Assembly: GCA_021831565.1 (NCBI GenBank)
Contig: JAKBMM010000005.1
Coordinates: 16,998 to 80,997 of the forward strand
Source: Planctomycetota bacterium
GTDB lineage: Bacteria > Planctomycetota > Phycisphaerae > WQYP01
Length of the DNA: 64,000 nt
Reading direction: 5' to 3'
Below are positions 53,507 to 62,338 of the stretch, one piece after another. Under the pieces are notes generated by a model. That model made no database searches. It had not been told where the DNA came from and saw only the letters and a list, made by a program, of their open reading frames with translations. The position numbers and the translations under genes were made by a program. How positions within the stretch are numbered: the stretch's first letter is position 1; each line of letters opens with the position of its first letter.

Positions 53507-56500
53507 CTATCCCGGCGCACCGGGGCCGCGGAAGGTCCCAACCACCTGGCTGGTCAGGCTCACGGTGCGTGCCGGGGAGCGGAAACGGCCGTCGGCCTTG
53601 CCGGCGGCGATGGCATTTTGCACTTCGCGCACGCGATTCTGGGCGGCCTCCATTTTGGGATAGCGAACCTCTCGAAAACCGGTCACCGTTTGCGGCGCCT
53701 GGAGAATGTCGAGCCAGAGATTGTAAAGCCACGGCTCGTGCAACTCGCAGGTATCGACCAGGCGCAGGTACCAGTCACGGAACGAGCGTTCCCGGGCGTG
53801 CCAGGCGGGAAGAAGGGTGCGCAGCCAGCGGCAGTGGCGCAGGATGCGCATCTGCCAGTCGTAACCCTTGAGATGGAATCGGATTCGCAGGCCGCCGATC
53901 TCAAATTCAGGACGATTCAGATGCACGTATTTGATATGGTCGCCGTTGGCGGGGTTCACGTTGAAGCGGCGGCGATCCCGCCGATACTTTTCCGGGCTGG
54001 TGTACATCATGGCGACGTACACTTCGTCCTTGATCATCAAGACGCGCGCCAGGTTTCCGATGACGGCGCGCGTGACGGCAAAATTTCGTTCGGCATTGTC
54101 CTGCTGGTATGTTTTGACCACGCGCGCGGCATAGCCGCGGCCATAGGGAAGTCCACCCCATTGAATCGCGTCGAACAGGCGGATGACATAATCGCGTTTC
54201 GCGGCGGCGTCCAGAAGCGGCATCCGGGCGAGCGTGTCGCGGCAGATGACGCGGTACTCCGCGGCGTTCTTTTTTCCCCAGAGAGAGCTGACGATCAGGA
54301 TGTTGGCTTTGCGGTCCATGGCCTGGTCGAACGTTTCGACCTCGTGGACGGCGGCCACACCGAAAAGGTCCGGCCGCAACACGATTTTGCGGCCGATGTT
54401 GAACGCGCGGTAATTGCGTTCAAACTCGCGGCGCACGGCGTGCCGAATGGCCCAGGTGATGCTCTTGTAGGAAACAGGTATAAACCCCAGTTGGTAGGCT
54501 ACGCCGAGCATCATGATATTGGCGTAAAGTTTGGAATCCAGCAAGCGTTCACATAGATCACTTACGTTGAAACTGAAGAACCGTCCCGGCTGGCACTGGG
54601 TCCTGATGGTTTCGGAGAGCCGTTCCGGTGAAAAATCCTCGCATCCAAGCAGGCTAAGAATCGTCTCTGTTTTACCGGTATTGATGACCGCATGGGTATG
54701 GGCGGGCGAGGCCACGCGAAGATAATCGTTGGGGGAAATGGCCCGAGCCGCCTCGAGTGCGTCGATGCCGATGAGCAGGTCCGCCTTGCCGAAGGGCGTG
54801 ATCGCGGAACCCTGGATGGGATTTTTAGAAAACAACAGTTGACTGAAAACACCGCCGTTGCGGATGGCCAGGCCTTTCTTATCAACAAAGGCGATGTAAT
54901 AGCCCTCTTTGTGGCCGGCGCGCACCAGAATTTCACCGGCCACGCCGATGCCCATGCCGCCGACGCCGGCCAGGTAGCAGCGCCACTGGTCGCCCATTTT
55001 CATCAGCGGCGGTTCGGGCATGCCGGTCAAATCGACCACTTCATCGGGCATGCGCGGCGGGCGCTTGCGGGTGACGATGACCTGTTCAAAACTGGGGCAG
55101 GCGTCGATGCGCGCACAGGCGCCGTCATTGACGCAGGTGGTGAAGCCGGTCTGGATTTTCGGACCGTAATCCGTTGACGTCACTTTCAACCCCGGGCAGC
55201 CGGTTTGCCGGGTGCACTCCAGGCAATATTCGCACACTTCCTCGGCGACGTTCATGTACGCCTTCTGGTGCACAAAGCCGTACTCTTTCTTCTCCTGCAC
55301 CTCGGCGCGATGCTGGCGACGATGGAAGGTAATGCCGCATTCTTTGTCGGCGATGATTACCTTTACGCCGTCTTCCAGGATGACGCGCTCAAGAATGTCG
55401 CGGTAGTTGTCGCGGTCGGCCGGATTCATGCGGATGACACGCGGCTGCGGTTCATTGCGGCCATCCTTGCCGCGGATGCGCAGCGGGCCGGCGACGTCGG
55501 GGATCATGGACCGGACCATGCGTTCGATATCATGCGCCATCGCCATCTGGCCGGTGATATCCTCCTGAAGCGTGGGGTTGGGCTGGTGGCCAGTCATGGC
55601 CGTGGTCTTGTTCTCCAGGATGATATAGGTGATGTCCTGGCCCTGGTTGATGGAGTTGGCGATGGCCAGTTGCCCGGAATGAAAAAACGTTCCGTCGCCC
55701 ATGAACACAATCTGCTTGTTGGTGATGAAGGGGTCCACGCCTCCCCCGGTGGCGCCTCCCAGCCCCATGCCGCTGTAGTTGTGCATGAGAGGTTTGTTCG
55801 GCTCGAACATCATCATGGTATAGCAGCCGGTGTCGCCATGCGCGACCAGATCCACCGGCGGGCGGTTGTAATGTTGCTGCATGTATTGCGGGTCGAGCAG
55901 GTGACGGCGAATTTCCAGTAGGGCGCTGGACGAATCGCGATGGGGGCAACCGGGACAATACGCCGGCGTTCGCACCGGAACACCGGCGGCGACCAGGCCG
56001 GCCTGCGCGATGGTTTGGAGTTCTTCCGTCAGACGGCCGTTGGAAAGATCGTGCGGAATGTTGGGAGTTTCGCGCAGGAAATCGGCGAGCCGTTCAATCA
56101 GAATGGATGGGTGCAGACCACGTGTCGACGGAATGCCGGCCCGCCCCTGGGGAAATGTCTTACCCCAGATCTGTACACGGCCATTGGGATGATCCGGATG
56201 GATTTGCCGCTGGCGGGTAAGATGCTCGGCGATCTGCTTTTCCAGAAAGCTGCGCCGCTCTTCCACTACGATAATGTGTTCGCACATGCCGGCGAGTTCA
56301 TCAATCAAGCCGCCGTCCAGGGGATAGCTCAAGGCCAGTTTGAGCATCGGAAACGTCCCGAGCAGATCCATTTCCCGCAAGGCGTGCGCGAGCAGCGTGT
56401 GCGACATGCCCGAAGAAATAAAGCCCAGCGGCGCCCGCTCAGACCGGCCGCCGCGCCAGGTTCTTTCCATTGGATAAAGAATGCGGGAAAGTCCCAATTG

Positions 56501-57235
56501 CCGGCAGCGTTGATGCAAAGCCGCAAAGCGCTGATCAAAAGTAAGTTCCCGGCGCCAACTTCGCGGCGGCAGCAACACGGTTGTTTCAACCGGAATTTTC
56601 TCCGTCTCGATGGCGATCCGGTCTTTCGTGTTAATCGTGGGCCAATGGTTGGGTCGGCATTCCACCGTGCCTCCGCCGTCGGCCAGAGCAACGGTAACCA
56701 TCATGCCGATGTAGAGCTTGACCGCCGTCGATAGGTCAAACGCCAGCGCCACCCAGTCCTTGAGTTCCTGCGAATTGGCCGGTTCCATGACCGGAACGCG
56801 AAGATGTTCAAACAGAAACCGCGAGTCCGCCGGGACCTGGGTGGAATCGCTCCAGGGATCATCGCCGGAAACCACCACGGCTCCTCCACCGGGGTGGGGG
56901 ATTCCGGCGAGATTGCCCAGGGCCAGCGCATCGGCGGCCACATGCAAGCCAATCGATTTAAATACCGCGATGCCCTTGACTCCGACCATCTGCGCCCCGT
57001 TAAGCATCGCCACGCTGATGGCCTCGTTGTTGGCCATCTTGGCGCAGATGCCTTTTTCATTAAGCAGCGGGCCGATGTCGTGGCAGGAATCGAAAAAGCC
57101 GGCCAGCGGCGAACCGGGGTAACCGGTAAGAAGGGCTACCCCGCCGGGAGTTTCCAGGCAACCCTTGAGAAGCAATTCCGAACCCGTGAAGATTTCGACG
57201 CCGCTCTCGACTTGGAAACGATGATCTATTTTCAT
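53507..57235 (-). CDS. Indolepyruvate:ferredoxin oxidoreductase-family protein, fused alpha plus gamma plus C-terminal (DUF6537-like) domain
   Basis: GYPGSPLAGFFD; APAYCPGCPHRDSSSAL; TPP motif FMGDGTFFHSGQLAIANSINQGQDITYIILENKTTAMTGHQPNP; Fe-S cysteines VCEYCLECTRQTGCPGL; gamma-like AGVGGMGIGVAGEILVRAGHKEGY. Confidence 0.9.
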   Translation of the reverse strand: MKIDHRFQVESGVEIFTGSELLLKGCLETPGGVALLTGYPGSPLAGFFDSCHDIGPLLNEKGICAKMANNEAISVAMLNGAQMVGVKGIAVFKSIGLHVAADALALGNLAGIPHPGGGAVVVSGDDPWSDSTQVPADSRFLFEHLRVPVMEPANSQELKDWVALAFDLSTAVKLYIGMMVTVALADGGGTVECRPNHWPTINTKDRIAIETEKIPVETTVLLPPRSWRRELTFDQRFAALHQRCRQLGLSRILYPMERTWRGGRSERAPLGFISSGMSHTLLAHALREMDLLGTFPMLKLALSYPLDGGLIDELAGMCEHIIVVEERRSFLEKQIAEHLTRQRQIHPDHPNGRVQIWGKTFPQGRAGIPSTRGLHPSILIERLADFLRETPNIPHDLSNGRLTEELQTIAQAGLVAAGVPVRTPAYCPGCPHRDSSSALLEIRRHLLDPQYMQQHYNRPPVDLVAHGDTGCYTMMMFEPNKPLMHNYSGMGLGGATGGGVDPFITNKQIVFMGDGTFFHSGQLAIANSINQGQDITYIILENKTTAMTGHQPNPTLQEDITGQMAMAHDIERMVRSMIPDVAGPLRIRGKDGRNEPQPRVIRMNPADRDNYRDILERVILEDGVKVIIADKECGITFHRRQHRAEVQEKKEYGFVHQKAYMNVAEEVCEYCLECTRQTGCPGLKVTSTDYGPKIQTGFTTCVNDGACARIDACPSFEQVIVTRKRPPRMPDEVVDLTGMPEPPLMKMGDQWRCYLAGVGGMGIGVAGEILVRAGHKEGYYIAFVDKKGLAIRNGGVFSQLLFSKNPIQGSAITPFGKADLLIGIDALEAARAISPNDYLRVASPAHTHAVINTGKTETILSLLGCEDFSPERLSETIRTQCQPGRFFSFNVSDLCERLLDSKLYANIMMLGVAYQLGFIPVSYKSITWAIRHAVRREFERNYRAFNIGRKIVLRPDLFGVAAVHEVETFDQAMDRKANILIVSSLWGKKNAAEYRVICRDTLARMPLLDAAAKRDYVIRLFDAIQWGGLPYGRGYAARVVKTYQQDNAERNFAVTRAVIGNLARVLMIKDEVYVAMMYTSPEKYRRDRRRFNVNPANGDHIKYVHLNRPEFEIGGLRIRFHLKGYDWQMRILRHCRWLRTLLPAWHARERSFRDWYLRLVDTCELHEPWLYNLWLDILQAPQTVTGFREVRYPKMEAAQNRVREVQNAIAAGKADGRFRSPARTVSLTSQVVGTFRGPGAPG

Positions 57236-57679: not shown

Positions 57680-57778
57680 TGAGAATATGACCAATGCATG
57701 ACTCTCTGCGGTCCCTTTTTGATATACTCTGCATCGTCGGTGCTTTGCCAGCACATAATGGGTGACACAGGAGAGTTT

Positions 57779-59065
57779 ATGGCGGCGGGAAAATTGCGCG
57801 TCGTGGTTATGCAGGATGGCGCGCGGCTTCACTATGCGATGCCGCGGGCCATCCGGCGCGCCGATATGCTCGCGGCCCTCTACACGGATTGGTACAACGA
57901 TAAGTCCAAGTTGGCCCGTATGATTATCGTTCTTGCCCGGCGAGTACGTCCATTGCGGGCGGTTCGGATGGAGCAACGACGTTCGGACGATCTGGACGGC
58001 GTGCCGATATTCGACGCGAAGCTCTTAAGCATACCCATCCTGTCTCTCTGGCCCCGTTGGGAGATTATCCAGACGATACAACGCGGGGCGATCTGGCTGC
58101 GCCACCGGCGGCTCTTTCACCGCGGACCGATTGCGGCGCGATCACGGGTCGTTGATGTCGTTTTGGCTTTTACCTATTTCGTGAGTCTCCGCTATTGCCG
58201 TGCCATGCAGTCCCGCGGCATCAAGGTGGTGGCCGACCAGCCTATCGCCTCGGCACGGGAGCTGACCCGACAGCGCAGCTTGGCCGACCACCGGTGGCCG
58301 GGATGGGAACCCCGGCAAACCGGCGACTGGTTGGCGCAGGAGATCCGGCGGGAAGCGGCTCTATTACCTATACTCGACCATCTCCTCTGCGCGTCGCAAT
58401 TCGTCAAGGATTCTCTCGTGGCGCAGGGAATTGACGCAGACAAGATTAGCGTTGTGCCCTATCCGACGGATACCGTGAACTTTGCGCCTCTGGACCGTCG
58501 GGGGCGGACGGGGCCGGTTGTGGTCGGCTTCGTGGGCTCAGTGAATCTGCGCAAAGGGGCGCCCTGGTTTCTTGAGGTCGCCAGACGTTGCGACCCGAAG
58601 CTGGTGAAATTCGTCATGGTCGGGCCTATCGAGTTGACCGGCTATGGTCAGGAGCAGCTTCGCCGGCACGTGGAACTGATCGGTTCGGTTCCACGATCCG
58701 AGGTAAGCCAATGGCTGGAACGTTTCGATATCTTTCTGTTCCCATCCACATGCGAAGGCTCGGCGGGGGTGGTGATGGAGGCCATGGCCACCGCATTGCC
58801 GATCATCACCACACCCAACAGCGGCACGGTGGCGCGCAACGGCGTGGACGGTTTTATCGCCGCTTATGACCAAAGCGACCTGCTGGCGCAACGCGTGATG
58901 GAATTGGCCCGGGATAGCCAGATGCGCCAGGCGATGGGGCAATCGGCCCGTAAACGAGCCGAGGAATTCGACATCGATCGCTACAGTCGCGAATTGTCGG
59001 GATTGTTGTCGCGTATCGCCGGGACGCAAAACACCGCCCGGGAGGCGACGCCGCCGGCGGGATAA
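57779..59065 (+). CDS. Glycosyltransferase family 4
   Basis: VVGFVGSVNLRKGAPWFLEVARR; FLFPSTCEGSAGVVMEAMATALPIITTPNSGTVARNGVDGFIA. Confidence 0.9.
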   Translation: MAAGKLRVVVMQDGARLHYAMPRAIRRADMLAALYTDWYNDKSKLARMIIVLARRVRPLRAVRMEQRRSDDLDGVPIFDAKLLSIPILSLWPRWEIIQTIQRGAIWLRHRRLFHRGPIAARSRVVDVVLAFTYFVSLRYCRAMQSRGIKVVADQPIASARELTRQRSLADHRWPGWEPRQTGDWLAQEIRREAALLPILDHLLCASQFVKDSLVAQGIDADKISVVPYPTDTVNFAPLDRRGRTGPVVVGFVGSVNLRKGAPWFLEVARRCDPKLVKFVMVGPIELTGYGQEQLRRHVELIGSVPRSEVSQWLERFDIFLFPSTCEGSAGVVMEAMATALPIITTPNSGTVARNGVDGFIAAYDQSDLLAQRVMELARDSQMRQAMGQSARKRAEEFDIDRYSRELSGLLSRIAGTQNTAREATPPAG

Positions 59066-59169
59066 CCGGGCGGAAGCGCACGAACCGCTGCGCCTTTCCC
59101 GGCCCTCTTTCCAATTCGGATCGATCCTGTGATAATCCGGTGGGAAAGCAGCGTGTACCGGAGATTCCC

Positions 59170-59469
59170 ATGATTATCGCCAAGGTCATCGGAAAAGTGG
59201 TCGCGACGATGAAAGAACCGGGCTTCCATAGCAAGAAGCTGGTGGTGGTCCATGCGCATCTAATCAAAGATGGGCGGCTTGTTCCGGGGCAGACCGTAAT
59301 TGTCGCCAACGACGAACTGGGCGCCAGAGAGGGCGACTTGGTGGCGGTAACCCAGGGCAGCTCAGCCCGGCTGGCGCCGGGTATGAAAAACTGCCCCACC
59401 GATGCGGTGGTGATTGCGCTGATCGACCGCATTGATGCGGAAGGCAAAGTCGTTTTTCGCAAGGGATAA
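59170..59469 (+). CDS. BMC-P shell vertex protein (EutN/CcmL family), copy 1
   Basis: MIIAKVIGKVVATMKEPGFHSKKLVVVHAHLIKDGRLVPGQTVIVANDELGAREGDLVAVTQGSSAR...CPTDAVVIALIDRIDAEGKVVF. Confidence 0.92.
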   Translation: MIIAKVIGKVVATMKEPGFHSKKLVVVHAHLIKDGRLVPGQTVIVANDELGAREGDLVAVTQGSSARLAPGMKNCPTDAVVIALIDRIDAEGKVVFRKG

Positions 59470-59484
59470 TTCAGGAAACCGGCG

Positions 59485-59745
59485 ATGTTTACGGCTCTGG
59501 TCAAGGGATCCGTTACCAGCACGTCCAAACACGCTTCCCTGAAAGGCGCGCGGCTGCTGATTGTGCAGCCCCGCGAGCCGCTTTCCGGCCAACCCAACGG
59601 TTTTGCCCAGATCGCGGTGGACGTGCTCGGCGCGGCAGTCGGCGCCCAAGTGCTGGTGAGCAGCGACGGTCGCGGGGTTCAGGACATGCTCAAGGTGGGC
59701 CGGGATTGTCCGGTCCGGCTGGTGATTGTGGCGTTGGTGGGTTAG
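59485..59745 (+). CDS. BMC-P shell vertex protein (EutN/CcmL family), copy 2
   Basis: MFTALVKGSVTSTSKHASLKGARLLIVQPREP...QIAVDVLGAAVGAQVLVSSDGRGVQDML...CPVRLVIVALVG. Confidence 0.9.
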   Translation: MFTALVKGSVTSTSKHASLKGARLLIVQPREPLSGQPNGFAQIAVDVLGAAVGAQVLVSSDGRGVQDMLKVGRDCPVRLVIVALVG

Positions 59746-59839
59746 GTTCCGACTTCCAATGGTTCGCGGCGCCGGCGGCTGCGTCGGGATTGGCTTGGCC
59801 GGAGAAATAACACCGGCGCGTTTGGGAAGTACTCACCGC

Positions 59840-60106
59840 ATGTATATGGCTCGTATAATCGGTCACGTGGAAGCCCGCATTCGTTCGCCGGGATTGGAAG
59901 CGCACCGTCTGGTATTGCTCCAACCGCTGGATTTTAACGAACAGCCGATTCGCTGGAGCCTCATCGCCATGGACCTCACCGGCGCGGCGACCGGTTCGCT
60001 GGTAACCTTTGAGGAAGGCCGGGAGGCGGCCAATCCATACGATCCACCTTTGCCGGTGGACGCTTGCGTCGTGGCCGTGGTCGATCACTTCCAGTATCAG
60101 CCGTAA
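59840..60106 (+). CDS. BMC-P shell vertex protein (EutN/CcmL family), copy 3
   Basis: MYMARIIGHVEARIRSPGLEAHRLVLLQPLDF...LIAMDLTGAATGSLVTFEEGREAAN...PVDACVVAVVDHFQ. Confidence 0.88.
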   Translation: MYMARIIGHVEARIRSPGLEAHRLVLLQPLDFNEQPIRWSLIAMDLTGAATGSLVTFEEGREAANPYDPPLPVDACVVAVVDHFQYQP

Positions 60107-60147: not shown

Positions 60148-61332
60148 TTACGACGCCGGGTCAAAGCGGAATACCACGTCGAAAACCTTGCCCCCATGCC
60201 GCTGGGCGATAATTTCTTCCTTGATCATGCACAGCTTTACGGCGGCGACGTGGAAAGGAGTCTGAAAGTTGCTCTCCAGACCACGCCCCATGCCCTCCAG
60301 AAAAATAAGATCGGCGGCGGCGGCATGCGCGTTGCATTCTTCGGATACGCAGCGCAGATCAAGCAGCGGCGTGGCGCCACCGGAAGAGGCCGCCCGAATC
60401 CGTCCCGCGCTCATCATATCGTTAAAAACGCGATCCACTTTCCGCACGCTCGCCAGTAACGGATGCAATTCAACAATGGTCATGTCGTTGAGCGCCGGGT
60501 GTTCGTTGGCCAGCAGGCACACGGTTACGCCGCGCTGCGCCAGCCATCGCGCCAGTGGAAATACGCCCAGGACGGCGTCGCTGCCGGCGTTGTCCATGAA
60601 AAACAAGGCTTTGCGGTAGCCGGGTGGATTCAACAGGCTTTGGGCGAAGGCATCGAAATGATCGACCAGCCAGGAACGCTTGCCATCCAGGTCAGCGCGA
60701 ATCTGGAAGAAGTCCGGAGAATTTCCAGCGAACATGCCGGCGGTGGCCGTGGCGCCCAAGTCGAAAATGTTGCCCGCAAACACCCCTTCCACAAGCAAGC
60801 GCAGCGTTTCCAGGGGATCGACGTGGCGATCTATTTCGGCGATCAGAGCCGGATACAACTTCAGCATGGCGTCGTTTTCGCGCTGCTTGGCCAGCAGGAA
60901 GGGGTCGGGCACGTCGAATTGCTGGAGATATTTCTGGCGGATCAGCCCAAGAACCTGCAAGTTCAATTCGCCGTATTGCCCGGGTGCATGCCGGAGCAAT
61001 TCGAGTTCGGCGGCCAGGGCGGCGCGGCAGGCTGTGGCCCGTGCGGCGCCGGCGGGACCATAGGTTTGGCCGGCCAGACGGATGATCAGATCAAAATGCC
61101 AAACAAAATGGTCCAGCCAGTAATTGCGGAACGCGGCATCCACCAGCATATTTTCCGTGCAGGGGTAGTATTCGGCGGGGTTCGAAAGCAATGAAAAAAA
61201 AGGCAGGGGCGAAGCGCCTTTCGTTTCGCGGGCGCCGCCTGGTCCAGGGTTGGTTTCCGGTCTGGCCGGCCAGGGATCGGCGTCGGACGTTGGCGCATCG
61301 TCAGTTTGTGCAGAAGCGGTATTCAAAGGCAT
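60148..61332 (-). CDS. DUF89 / ARMT1-like damage-control phosphatase family protein
   Basis: KALFFMDNAGSDAVLGVFPLARWLAQRGVTVCLLANEHPALNDMT; DLIFLEGMGRGLESN; GNIFDLGA. Confidence 0.8.
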   Translation of the reverse strand: MPLNTASAQTDDAPTSDADPWPARPETNPGPGGARETKGASPLPFFSLLSNPAEYYPCTENMLVDAAFRNYWLDHFVWHFDLIIRLAGQTYGPAGAARATACRAALAAELELLRHAPGQYGELNLQVLGLIRQKYLQQFDVPDPFLLAKQRENDAMLKLYPALIAEIDRHVDPLETLRLLVEGVFAGNIFDLGATATAGMFAGNSPDFFQIRADLDGKRSWLVDHFDAFAQSLLNPPGYRKALFFMDNAGSDAVLGVFPLARWLAQRGVTVCLLANEHPALNDMTIVELHPLLASVRKVDRVFNDMMSAGRIRAASSGGATPLLDLRCVSEECNAHAAAADLIFLEGMGRGLESNFQTPFHVAAVKLCMIKEEIIAQRHGGKVFDVVFRFDPAS

Positions 61333-62338
61333 GGCGGTATTCTTCTCCCGGTGCAAGCATGATTGTGGGAAAATGGGGATGATGAACGGCATTGGGAAAG
61401 TGCTGCGTTTCCAGGCACACGCCGGAATGTTGTGGGTAGGCGCCGCCAATTCCCCGGATGCCGCCATCTAGAAAATTTCCGGTGTAAAGCTGAACGCCCG
61501 GTTGCGTAGTGTAAACCTCCAGTATGCGGGCGGTTTGAATCTCGCGCAGGCGGGCGGCGAGGTGGAGCGGATCGGGACCCTGGCGTAGAACGAAGTTGCA
61601 GTCGTAACCGGGCGGAATCTCGCCCATGCGCCGACCGATGGGCGTGGGTCTGGTGAAATCAAACGGTGTTCCCGCCACCGAGCGAATCTCACCGGTGGTG
61701 ATGAGTTGGGAGTCGCTGGGCGTGTAATAATCGGCGGGGATAAAAAGCTCGTGGTCCAGAATGGTCCCGTTGCCGGCCCCGTGCAGATTGAAATAGTTAT
61801 GATTGGCCAGGTTCACGGGCGTAGGCTGATCGGTTCGCGCCAGCATGTCGATTCGCAGGGTGTTCTTGGCGAGCAGGCGGTAAACCACCGTTACCCGCAG
61901 GTTGCCGGGAAAGCCTTCTTCGCCGTCCGGACTTTCGTAGACGAATTCAACCGCCGGGCCGTCGGCGCTCTGGCGGGCGGCGGCTTTCCACACGCGCCGG
62001 GCCATGCCCTGTGGACCACCATGAATCGCATTCGGTCCGTCGTTGGGCGTAAGCTTATACGTTTTTCCGCGATAACTGAAAGCGGCGCCGCGAATGCGGT
62101 TGACCACCCGTCCGACCATGCAGCCCAGATAGGGATGCGTGCGCAGGTAAGGCGCCAGCTCCGCGAAACCGAGTGCGACGTCGGCGGTTTCGCCGTGGCG
62201 GTCTGGAACGTGCAACTCGGTGATGGTTGCGCCATAGGAGGCGAGTTTCACCACCATGCCGTTGTCGTTGGTAAGAGTGAAAAGTTCGACGGGTGTGCCG
62301 TCGGGGGTTTTACCGAATAGCGATTGCTGAATTTTCAT
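61301..62338 (-). CDS. galM: Aldose 1-epimerase
   Basis: LTNDNGMVVKLASYGATITELHVPDRHGETADVALGF; YLGCMVGRVVNRIRGAAF; NDGPNAIHGGPQG; NLANHNYFNLHG. Confidence 0.93.
   Translation of the reverse strand: MKIQQSLFGKTPDGTPVELFTLTNDNGMVVKLASYGATITELHVPDRHGETADVALGFAELAPYLRTHPYLGCMVGRVVNRIRGAAFSYRGKTYKLTPNDGPNAIHGGPQGMARRVWKAAARQSADGPAVEFVYESPDGEEGFPGNLRVTVVYRLLAKNTLRIDMLARTDQPTPVNLANHNYFNLHGAGNGTILDHELFIPADYYTPSDSQLITTGEIRSVAGTPFDFTRPTPIGRRMGEIPPGYDCNFVLRQGPDPLHLAARLREIQTARILEVYTTQPGVQLYTGNFLDGGIRGIGGAYPQHSGVCLETQHFPNAVHHPHFPTIMLAPGEEYRHAFEYRFCTN

What the first reader, a model, noticed from the sequence alone, without database searches (positions are those of the whole stretch)
59170..60106. Three consecutive BMC-P vertex proteins without a BMC-H hexamer gene
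Seen: three tandem EutN/CcmL-like ORFs (99, 86 and 88 aa), divergent from each other, flanked by a GT4 gene and a convergent DUF89 gene. No BMC-H or trimer gene and no aldehyde dehydrogenase or aldolase core is visible in the window. Known: Planctomycete/Verrucomicrobia microcompartment loci carry three BMC-P paralogues but normally with BMC-H genes and a fucose/rhamnose aldolase pathway. Inference: a detached satellite shell locus, or vertex proteins with a different role.
Basis: partly seen in the sequence, partly recalled or inferred. Interest (0 to 1): 0.66.

Follow-up and report, generated by a model that had tools for sequence, protein, structure and literature searches.

The report
Detached vertex genes of bacterial microcompartment
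Three genes for the corner proteins of a protein-shelled bacterial organelle sit far from the genes for the rest of that organelle, and this split, with its own promoter, is kept across a whole family of uncultured planctomycetes.

Summary
Window 59170-60106 (+) encodes three tandem EutN/CcmL (PF03319) BMC-P proteins, the only ones in a 95%-complete genome. They are not orphans. On another contig (C3) lies an otherwise complete PVM-type microcompartment operon: PduL, BMC-H, BMC-H, AckA, BMC-H, AldDH, unknown, class II aldolase, LDH/MDH-like, DeoR. It has no BMC-P. In related families the same operon carries P1, P2 and P3 at three separate internal positions. In the window's family exactly those three genes are missing, the rest keeps its order, and P1-P2-P3 sit together elsewhere. 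In 15 of 15 genomes with both parts they are on different contigs. The operon has a direct-repeat operator over its promoter that occurs once in the genome. No triplet has it; most have a conserved -10 promoter element instead. Best reading: the triplet supplies the vertices of the PVM shell from a separate, differently controlled transcription unit. The family's BMC-P proteins branch far longer than the rest of the organelle, so they were either replaced by foreign copies or evolved very fast after moving; the trees cannot decide. This is a new variant of the known 'satellite locus' arrangement, not a new function.

The parts
59108..59136 (+). Promoter of the triplet: TTTCCA, 17 bp, extended -10 TGTGATAAT, 34-39 bp before the P1 start
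   Evidence: Consensus scan; [GA]ATAAT at similar distance in 12 of 16 relatives, 0.4 expected
59170..59469 (+). P1, BMC-P of the GSSAR type, 99 aa
   Evidence: PF03319 E 8e-24; groups with the P1 position of integrated PVM loci
59485..59745 (+). P2, BMC-P, 86 aa
   Evidence: PF03319 E 2e-19; groups with the P2 position of integrated PVM loci
59840..60106 (+). P3, BMC-P of the GREA type, 88 aa
   Evidence: PF03319 E 8e-16; groups with the P3 position of integrated PVM loci, support 97/72 in the larger tree
57698..59065 (+). Upstream neighbour, GT4 glycosyltransferase; not part of the system
   Evidence: Pfam; shared next to the triplet only in the same genus
60148..61467 (-). Downstream convergent DUF89/ARMT1-like gene; not part of the system
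   Evidence: Pfam; not found next to the triplet in the other genera

Best explanation
The three genes encode the complete pentamer (vertex) set of a PVM-type bacterial microcompartment. The facets (three BMC-H) and cargo (aldolase, AldDH, PduL and others) are encoded in a separate operon on contig C3. Proposed working: a sugar isomerase and kinase encoded elsewhere make a sugar 1-phosphate; the encapsulated class II aldolase cuts it to DHAP and lactaldehyde or a similar aldehyde; AldDH, PduL and AckA turn the aldehyde into an acid with ATP gain inside the shell; P1, P2 and P3 from the detached unit close the shell's corners. The main operon is controlled at a direct-repeat operator, probably by its own DeoR protein. 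The vertex unit has its own promoter without that operator, so vertex supply need not follow induction of the rest. Shown: gene content, orthology, family-wide split, operator and promoter difference. Inferred: co-assembly into one shell, DeoR binding, substrate, independent expression.
For: Only three PF03319 genes in the genome, all here; only three PF00936 genes, all in the C3 operon. C3 holds a standard PVM gene set without BMC-P. Same-class families f6, f9, f10, f12, f15, f18 and two genomes of other classes have the same operon with P1, P2, P3 interleaved; f1 lacks exactly these. Each f1 gene groups with its positional counterpart. Presence of both parts agrees in 16 of 17 f1 genomes at least 90% complete: 10 both, 6 neither, 1 BMC-H only (by hand, Fisher p about 6e-4, ignoring relatedness). 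Purifying selection. Operator at the main operon, unique in the genome at up to 3 mismatches, absent from all triplets; own -10 element at the triplet.
Against: No expression, binding or assembly data. One genome 91% complete has BMC-H but no P (G015), which may be assembly loss. P1 and P3 are more divergent than the rest of the organelle, so compatibility with these hexamers is assumed. Physical distance in the window's own genome is only guaranteed to be about 9 kb, because both loci lie near contig ends; larger distances come from relatives.
Confidence: 0.88

Rival explanations
1. Origin by replacement: the native, interleaved P genes were lost and a foreign contiguous P1-P2-P3 cassette from an unsampled PVM-like lineage took over, so the shell is a chimera of two histories. 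This concerns origin; the function in the best explanation stands.
For: f1 stem 1.07 in the concatenated triplet against 0.071 in the main operon; all integrated PVM triplets form one clade without f1, 100/99; P1 and P3 of f1 are less like f15/f18 (44, 35%) than f15/f18 are like f6 (56, 49%).
Against: No donor found in 392 genomes of the phylum. The AU test does not reject f1 with f15/f18 (p 0.12), and without the outgroup the difference falls to 1.2 log units (p 0.41), so long-branch attraction is possible. P2 shows no such excess.
Confidence: 0.4
2. Origin by relocation: the native P genes moved, for example by duplication of the operon and complementary loss, and then evolved fast for a while.
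For: P1-P2-P3 order equals the order in the operon, whereas the other tandem cassettes in the phylum read P1-P3-P2. P3 alone places f1 with f15/f18, weakly.
Against: Needs roughly tenfold or more faster change on the stem than within the family. No remnant of a duplicated operon next to any triplet.
Confidence: 0.5
3. The three proteins have a role other than shell vertices.
For: Strong divergence of P1 and P3; separate promoter.
Against: They are the only pentamers in genomes that otherwise encode a full PVM compartment, and they co-occur with it.
Confidence: 0.05
4. Assembly or binning artefact: the two parts are really one locus broken by the assembler.
For: All f1 genomes seen are fragmented assemblies; in the window's genome both loci are within 5 kb of a contig end.
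Against: Different contigs in 15 of 15 genomes; at least 27-34 kb apart in G002, G006 and G018; both loci carry unrelated flanking genes, and the operon is complete and continuous without P genes.
Confidence: 0.03

Closest known systems
PVM-type microcompartment locus (Planctomycetes and Verrucomicrobia; Axen 2014 PMC4207490; Sutter 2021 PMC8217296)
   Same: Class II aldolase, AldDH, PduL, acetate kinase, LDH/MDH-like dehydrogenase, DeoR, BMC-H; three BMC-P paralogues of the same three kinds.
   Different: All three BMC-P are outside the operon, together, with their own promoter; three BMC-H in the operon.
Satellite BMC loci (Axen 2014; Sutter 2021)
   Same: Contiguous shell genes far from the enzymes, completing another locus of the genome. 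Sutter reports a type I HO satellite with two BMC-P and an aldolase.
   Different: Here the satellite holds every pentamer and nothing else, so the enzyme locus is not a 'main locus' by the published rule (needs BMC-H and BMC-P).
Relocated ccmO of beta-cyanobacteria (Sommer 2017 PMC5853843)
   Same: A shell gene leaves the main locus in a lineage, with loss of co-expression reported there.
   Different: ccmO is a BMC-T; the pentamer gene ccmL always stayed in the main locus.
FRAG microcompartments (Sutter 2021)
   Same: Scattered shell genes with a BMC-P triplet.
   Different: Here a defined PVM enzyme operon exists; only the pentamers are apart.
PVM-like locus of Candidatus Solibacter usitatus without BMC-P (Axen 2014)
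   Same: A locus without BMC-P is thought to be completed by another locus.
   Different: There the second locus is itself a PVM-like locus; here it is a pure triplet.

Membership tests
BMC-P (EutN/CcmL, PF03319) | Match to the PF03319 profile over its length, above cut-off | tested here: met
   58.7-84.4 bits, cut-off 25
BMC-P (EutN/CcmL, PF03319) | Pentamer fold | tested here: inconclusive
   Sequence matches to solved pentamers; own model of P3 too poor, pLDDT 62
PVM-type BMC | Signature class II aldolase with AldDH, PTAC, acetate kinase, LDH/MDH-like dehydrogenase and DeoR regulator around BMC-H genes | tested here: met
   C3 operon
PVM-type BMC | BMC-P genes in the same locus | tested here: not met
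   None on C3; all three in the window
PVM-type BMC | BMC-P orthologous to those of PVM loci | tested here: met
   Position by position in trees
PVM-type BMC | Breakdown of L-fucose or L-rhamnose through lactaldehyde | not testable with these tools
   Fucose isomerase family protein and rhamnulokinase-like kinase are present elsewhere, RhaA absent
Satellite locus (Axen 2014) | Only PF03319 or only PF00936, contiguous shell genes | tested here: met
   Three adjacent PF03319 genes only
Satellite locus (Axen 2014) | At least one non-satellite BMC locus elsewhere in the genome | tested here: not met
   The only other locus has PF00936 but no PF03319, so by the strict rule the pair has no main locus; it works like a satellite all the same
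FRAG BMC (Sutter 2021) | Shell genes remote from known enzymes, no defined locus organisation | tested here: not met
   BMC-H lie in a standard PVM enzyme operon
BMC-P triplet (Sutter 2021) | One member each of the gray and orange clades plus a third | not tested
   The published colour models were not at hand; three distinct kinds are present

The most novel reading that the evidence does not exclude
The whole vertex set of a microcompartment was exchanged as one cassette for copies of different ancestry and put under a separate promoter without the operon's operator, giving a chimeric shell in which corner closure is controlled independently of facets and cargo.
Probability: 0.35. Interest if true: 0.68.

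Novelty: new variant of a known kind. Interest (0 to 1): 0.47.

Why it matters
BMC shells need few pentamers but are capped by them, and why many loci carry three BMC-P paralogues is an open question. A family-wide natural case in which all three, and nothing else, left the operon together suggests that the triplet is one functional module whose dosage or timing can be set apart from the rest. It also shows that locus rules requiring BMC-H and BMC-P side by side would find no main locus in a genome that encodes a full compartment.

Tried and rejected
Remnant or artefact: rejected (selection, 15 of 15 genomes, long flanks in relatives). A hidden second set of BMC-P: none in the genome. A donor lineage for the triplet: not found; best hits of the f1 P3 profile outside the family are BMC-P of other families' triplets, mostly P1-P3-P2 cassettes, at 50-74 bits, against 169 for the window's own P3. 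Replacement versus relocation: AU tests undecided. A first rpoB tree was spoiled by antisense ORFs and redone. AlphaFold2 of P3 with 8 sequences gave pLDDT 62 and was not used. Rfam found no RNA element near the triplet. A first synteny script failed and was fixed. I found no paper describing this split, but only openly licensed papers were searched and no supplements could be read.

Full report
Observation. The three ORFs are real PF03319 (BMC-P) genes, related by sequence to solved BMC-P pentamers. The window is part of contig C37 of a 2.81-Mb, 95%-complete genome in 86 contigs. That genome has no other PF03319 gene. Named relatives with close P2 proteins are Planctomycetota metagenome bins.

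The rest of the organelle. The genome's three BMC-H genes lie on contig C3, 9.8-12.2 kb, inside an operon in the order PduL, BMC-H, BMC-H, AckA, BMC-H, AldDH, a 261-aa protein without family match, class II aldolase, LDH/MDH-like dehydrogenase and DeoR regulator. This is the PVM gene set described by Axen 2014 (PMC4207490) without its BMC-P genes. AldDH and the 261-aa protein at their N-termini, the aldolase at its C-terminus and PduL near its N-terminus carry helix-like stretches of the kind used for encapsulation (sequences; reading them as encapsulation peptides is my inference).

Comparison. In same-class families f6, f9, f10, f12, f15 and f18 the operon is PduL-H-H-AckA-H-P1-AldDH-P2-unknown-P3-aldolase, and two genomes of other classes (G077, G144) have the same P positions. 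In the window's family f1 every other gene keeps its place and the three P genes are gone. P1-P2-P3 stand together elsewhere, in the same order. Of 18 f1 genomes with P and 17 with BMC-H, 15 have both, always on different contigs. In G002, G006 and G018 the contig flanks imply at least 27-34 kb between them (computed by hand from the coordinates); in the window's own genome the contigs only guarantee about 9 kb. The genes next to the triplet are shared within a genus only, apart from one short downstream gene shared by g2 and g7. Presence of the two parts agrees in 16 of 17 f1 genomes at least 90% complete.

Orthology. Trees of 78 and 109 BMC-P domains place each f1 gene with the integrated PVM genes of the same position. 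So the triplet corresponds to the operon's missing genes; it is not a triplication of one pentamer.

Two histories. For PduL, AckA, AldDH and aldolase together, f1 is sister to f15/f18 with a very short stem, 0.071; mean identities f1 to f15/f18 are 62-74% across enzymes and BMC-H. For P1 and P3 the same comparison gives 44% and 35%, below the 56% and 49% between f15/f18 and f6; P2 is unremarkable at 42% against 45%. The concatenated triplet puts f1 outside all integrated PVM triplets with a stem of 1.07. In rpoB f1 is about equally far from all families of the class compared, stem 0.22, so the main operon may itself have passed between the f1 and f15/f18 lineages. The triplet was thus either replaced by foreign copies or evolved very fast after moving. 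AU tests do not settle it (p 0.12), and removing the outgroup removes the signal against f15/f18 (p 0.41). I leave this open.

Control. Upstream of the main operon in most f1 genomes lies TTGCAAAATRTTTCA-N9-AAAATRTTTCA, a direct repeat with a 20-bp period overlapping, in the window's genome, a TTGCAA/TAAAAT promoter-like pair. It scores 17-26 of 26 in 14 of 16 genomes, each above its own shuffle maximum of 15-18, the weakest being G011 (17 against 15); the two genomes of genus g9 lack a match. In the window's genome the repeat is found once at up to 3 mismatches, at the main operon. In 16 triplet upstream regions the best scores are 12-17, at shuffle level or at most one base above it. Instead 12 of 16 have [GA]ATAAT at -31 to -55, with 0.4 expected. 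That the operator is bound by the operon's DeoR, and that the triplet is expressed independently, are inferences. A precedent is ccmO in cyanobacteria, which loses co-expression with the main locus when relocated, while the pentamer gene ccmL stays in it (PMC5853843).

Pathway. A fucose isomerase family protein and a rhamnulokinase-like kinase are encoded elsewhere; RhaA is absent. A fucose-type substrate is plausible, not shown.

Verdict. An ordinary protein family in an unusual and conserved arrangement: all vertex genes of a PVM microcompartment detached as one unit. The concept (satellite loci; PMC8217296) is known; this is a new variant.

Noticed in passing
window 53507-57235 (-): 1242-aa protein with TPP-enzyme C-terminal, POR and DUF6537 domains, like an indolepyruvate ferredoxin oxidoreductase.
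   Followed up: no
L007 14868-18253 (contig C3): HdrC/HdrA-like genes (iron-sulfur and heterodisulfide reductase type, named from the sequence only) lie next to the main BMC operon in the window's genus; the same block is seen in G001.
   Followed up: no
G024 (L121 and L122): Two triplets in one bin; the flanks of one are 98-100% identical to those of G003, so the bin is probably contaminated or holds two strains.
   Followed up: partly
L128-L130, L132, L134, L136-L140, L182, L189: Other Planctomycetota orders have tandem BMC-P triplets in P1-P3-P2 order, mostly followed by an aldolase-like gene and with no BMC-H recognised in the stretch fetched; possibly further satellite loci.
   Followed up: partly
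G011:C174:6774-7001 (L067): A BMC-H match with one in-frame TAG stop in one f1 genome; assembly error or pseudogene.
   Followed up: no
L088 7641-8063, L105 1550-1885: A short gene directly after P3 is shared by genera g2 and g7 only, about 50% identical.
   Followed up: no
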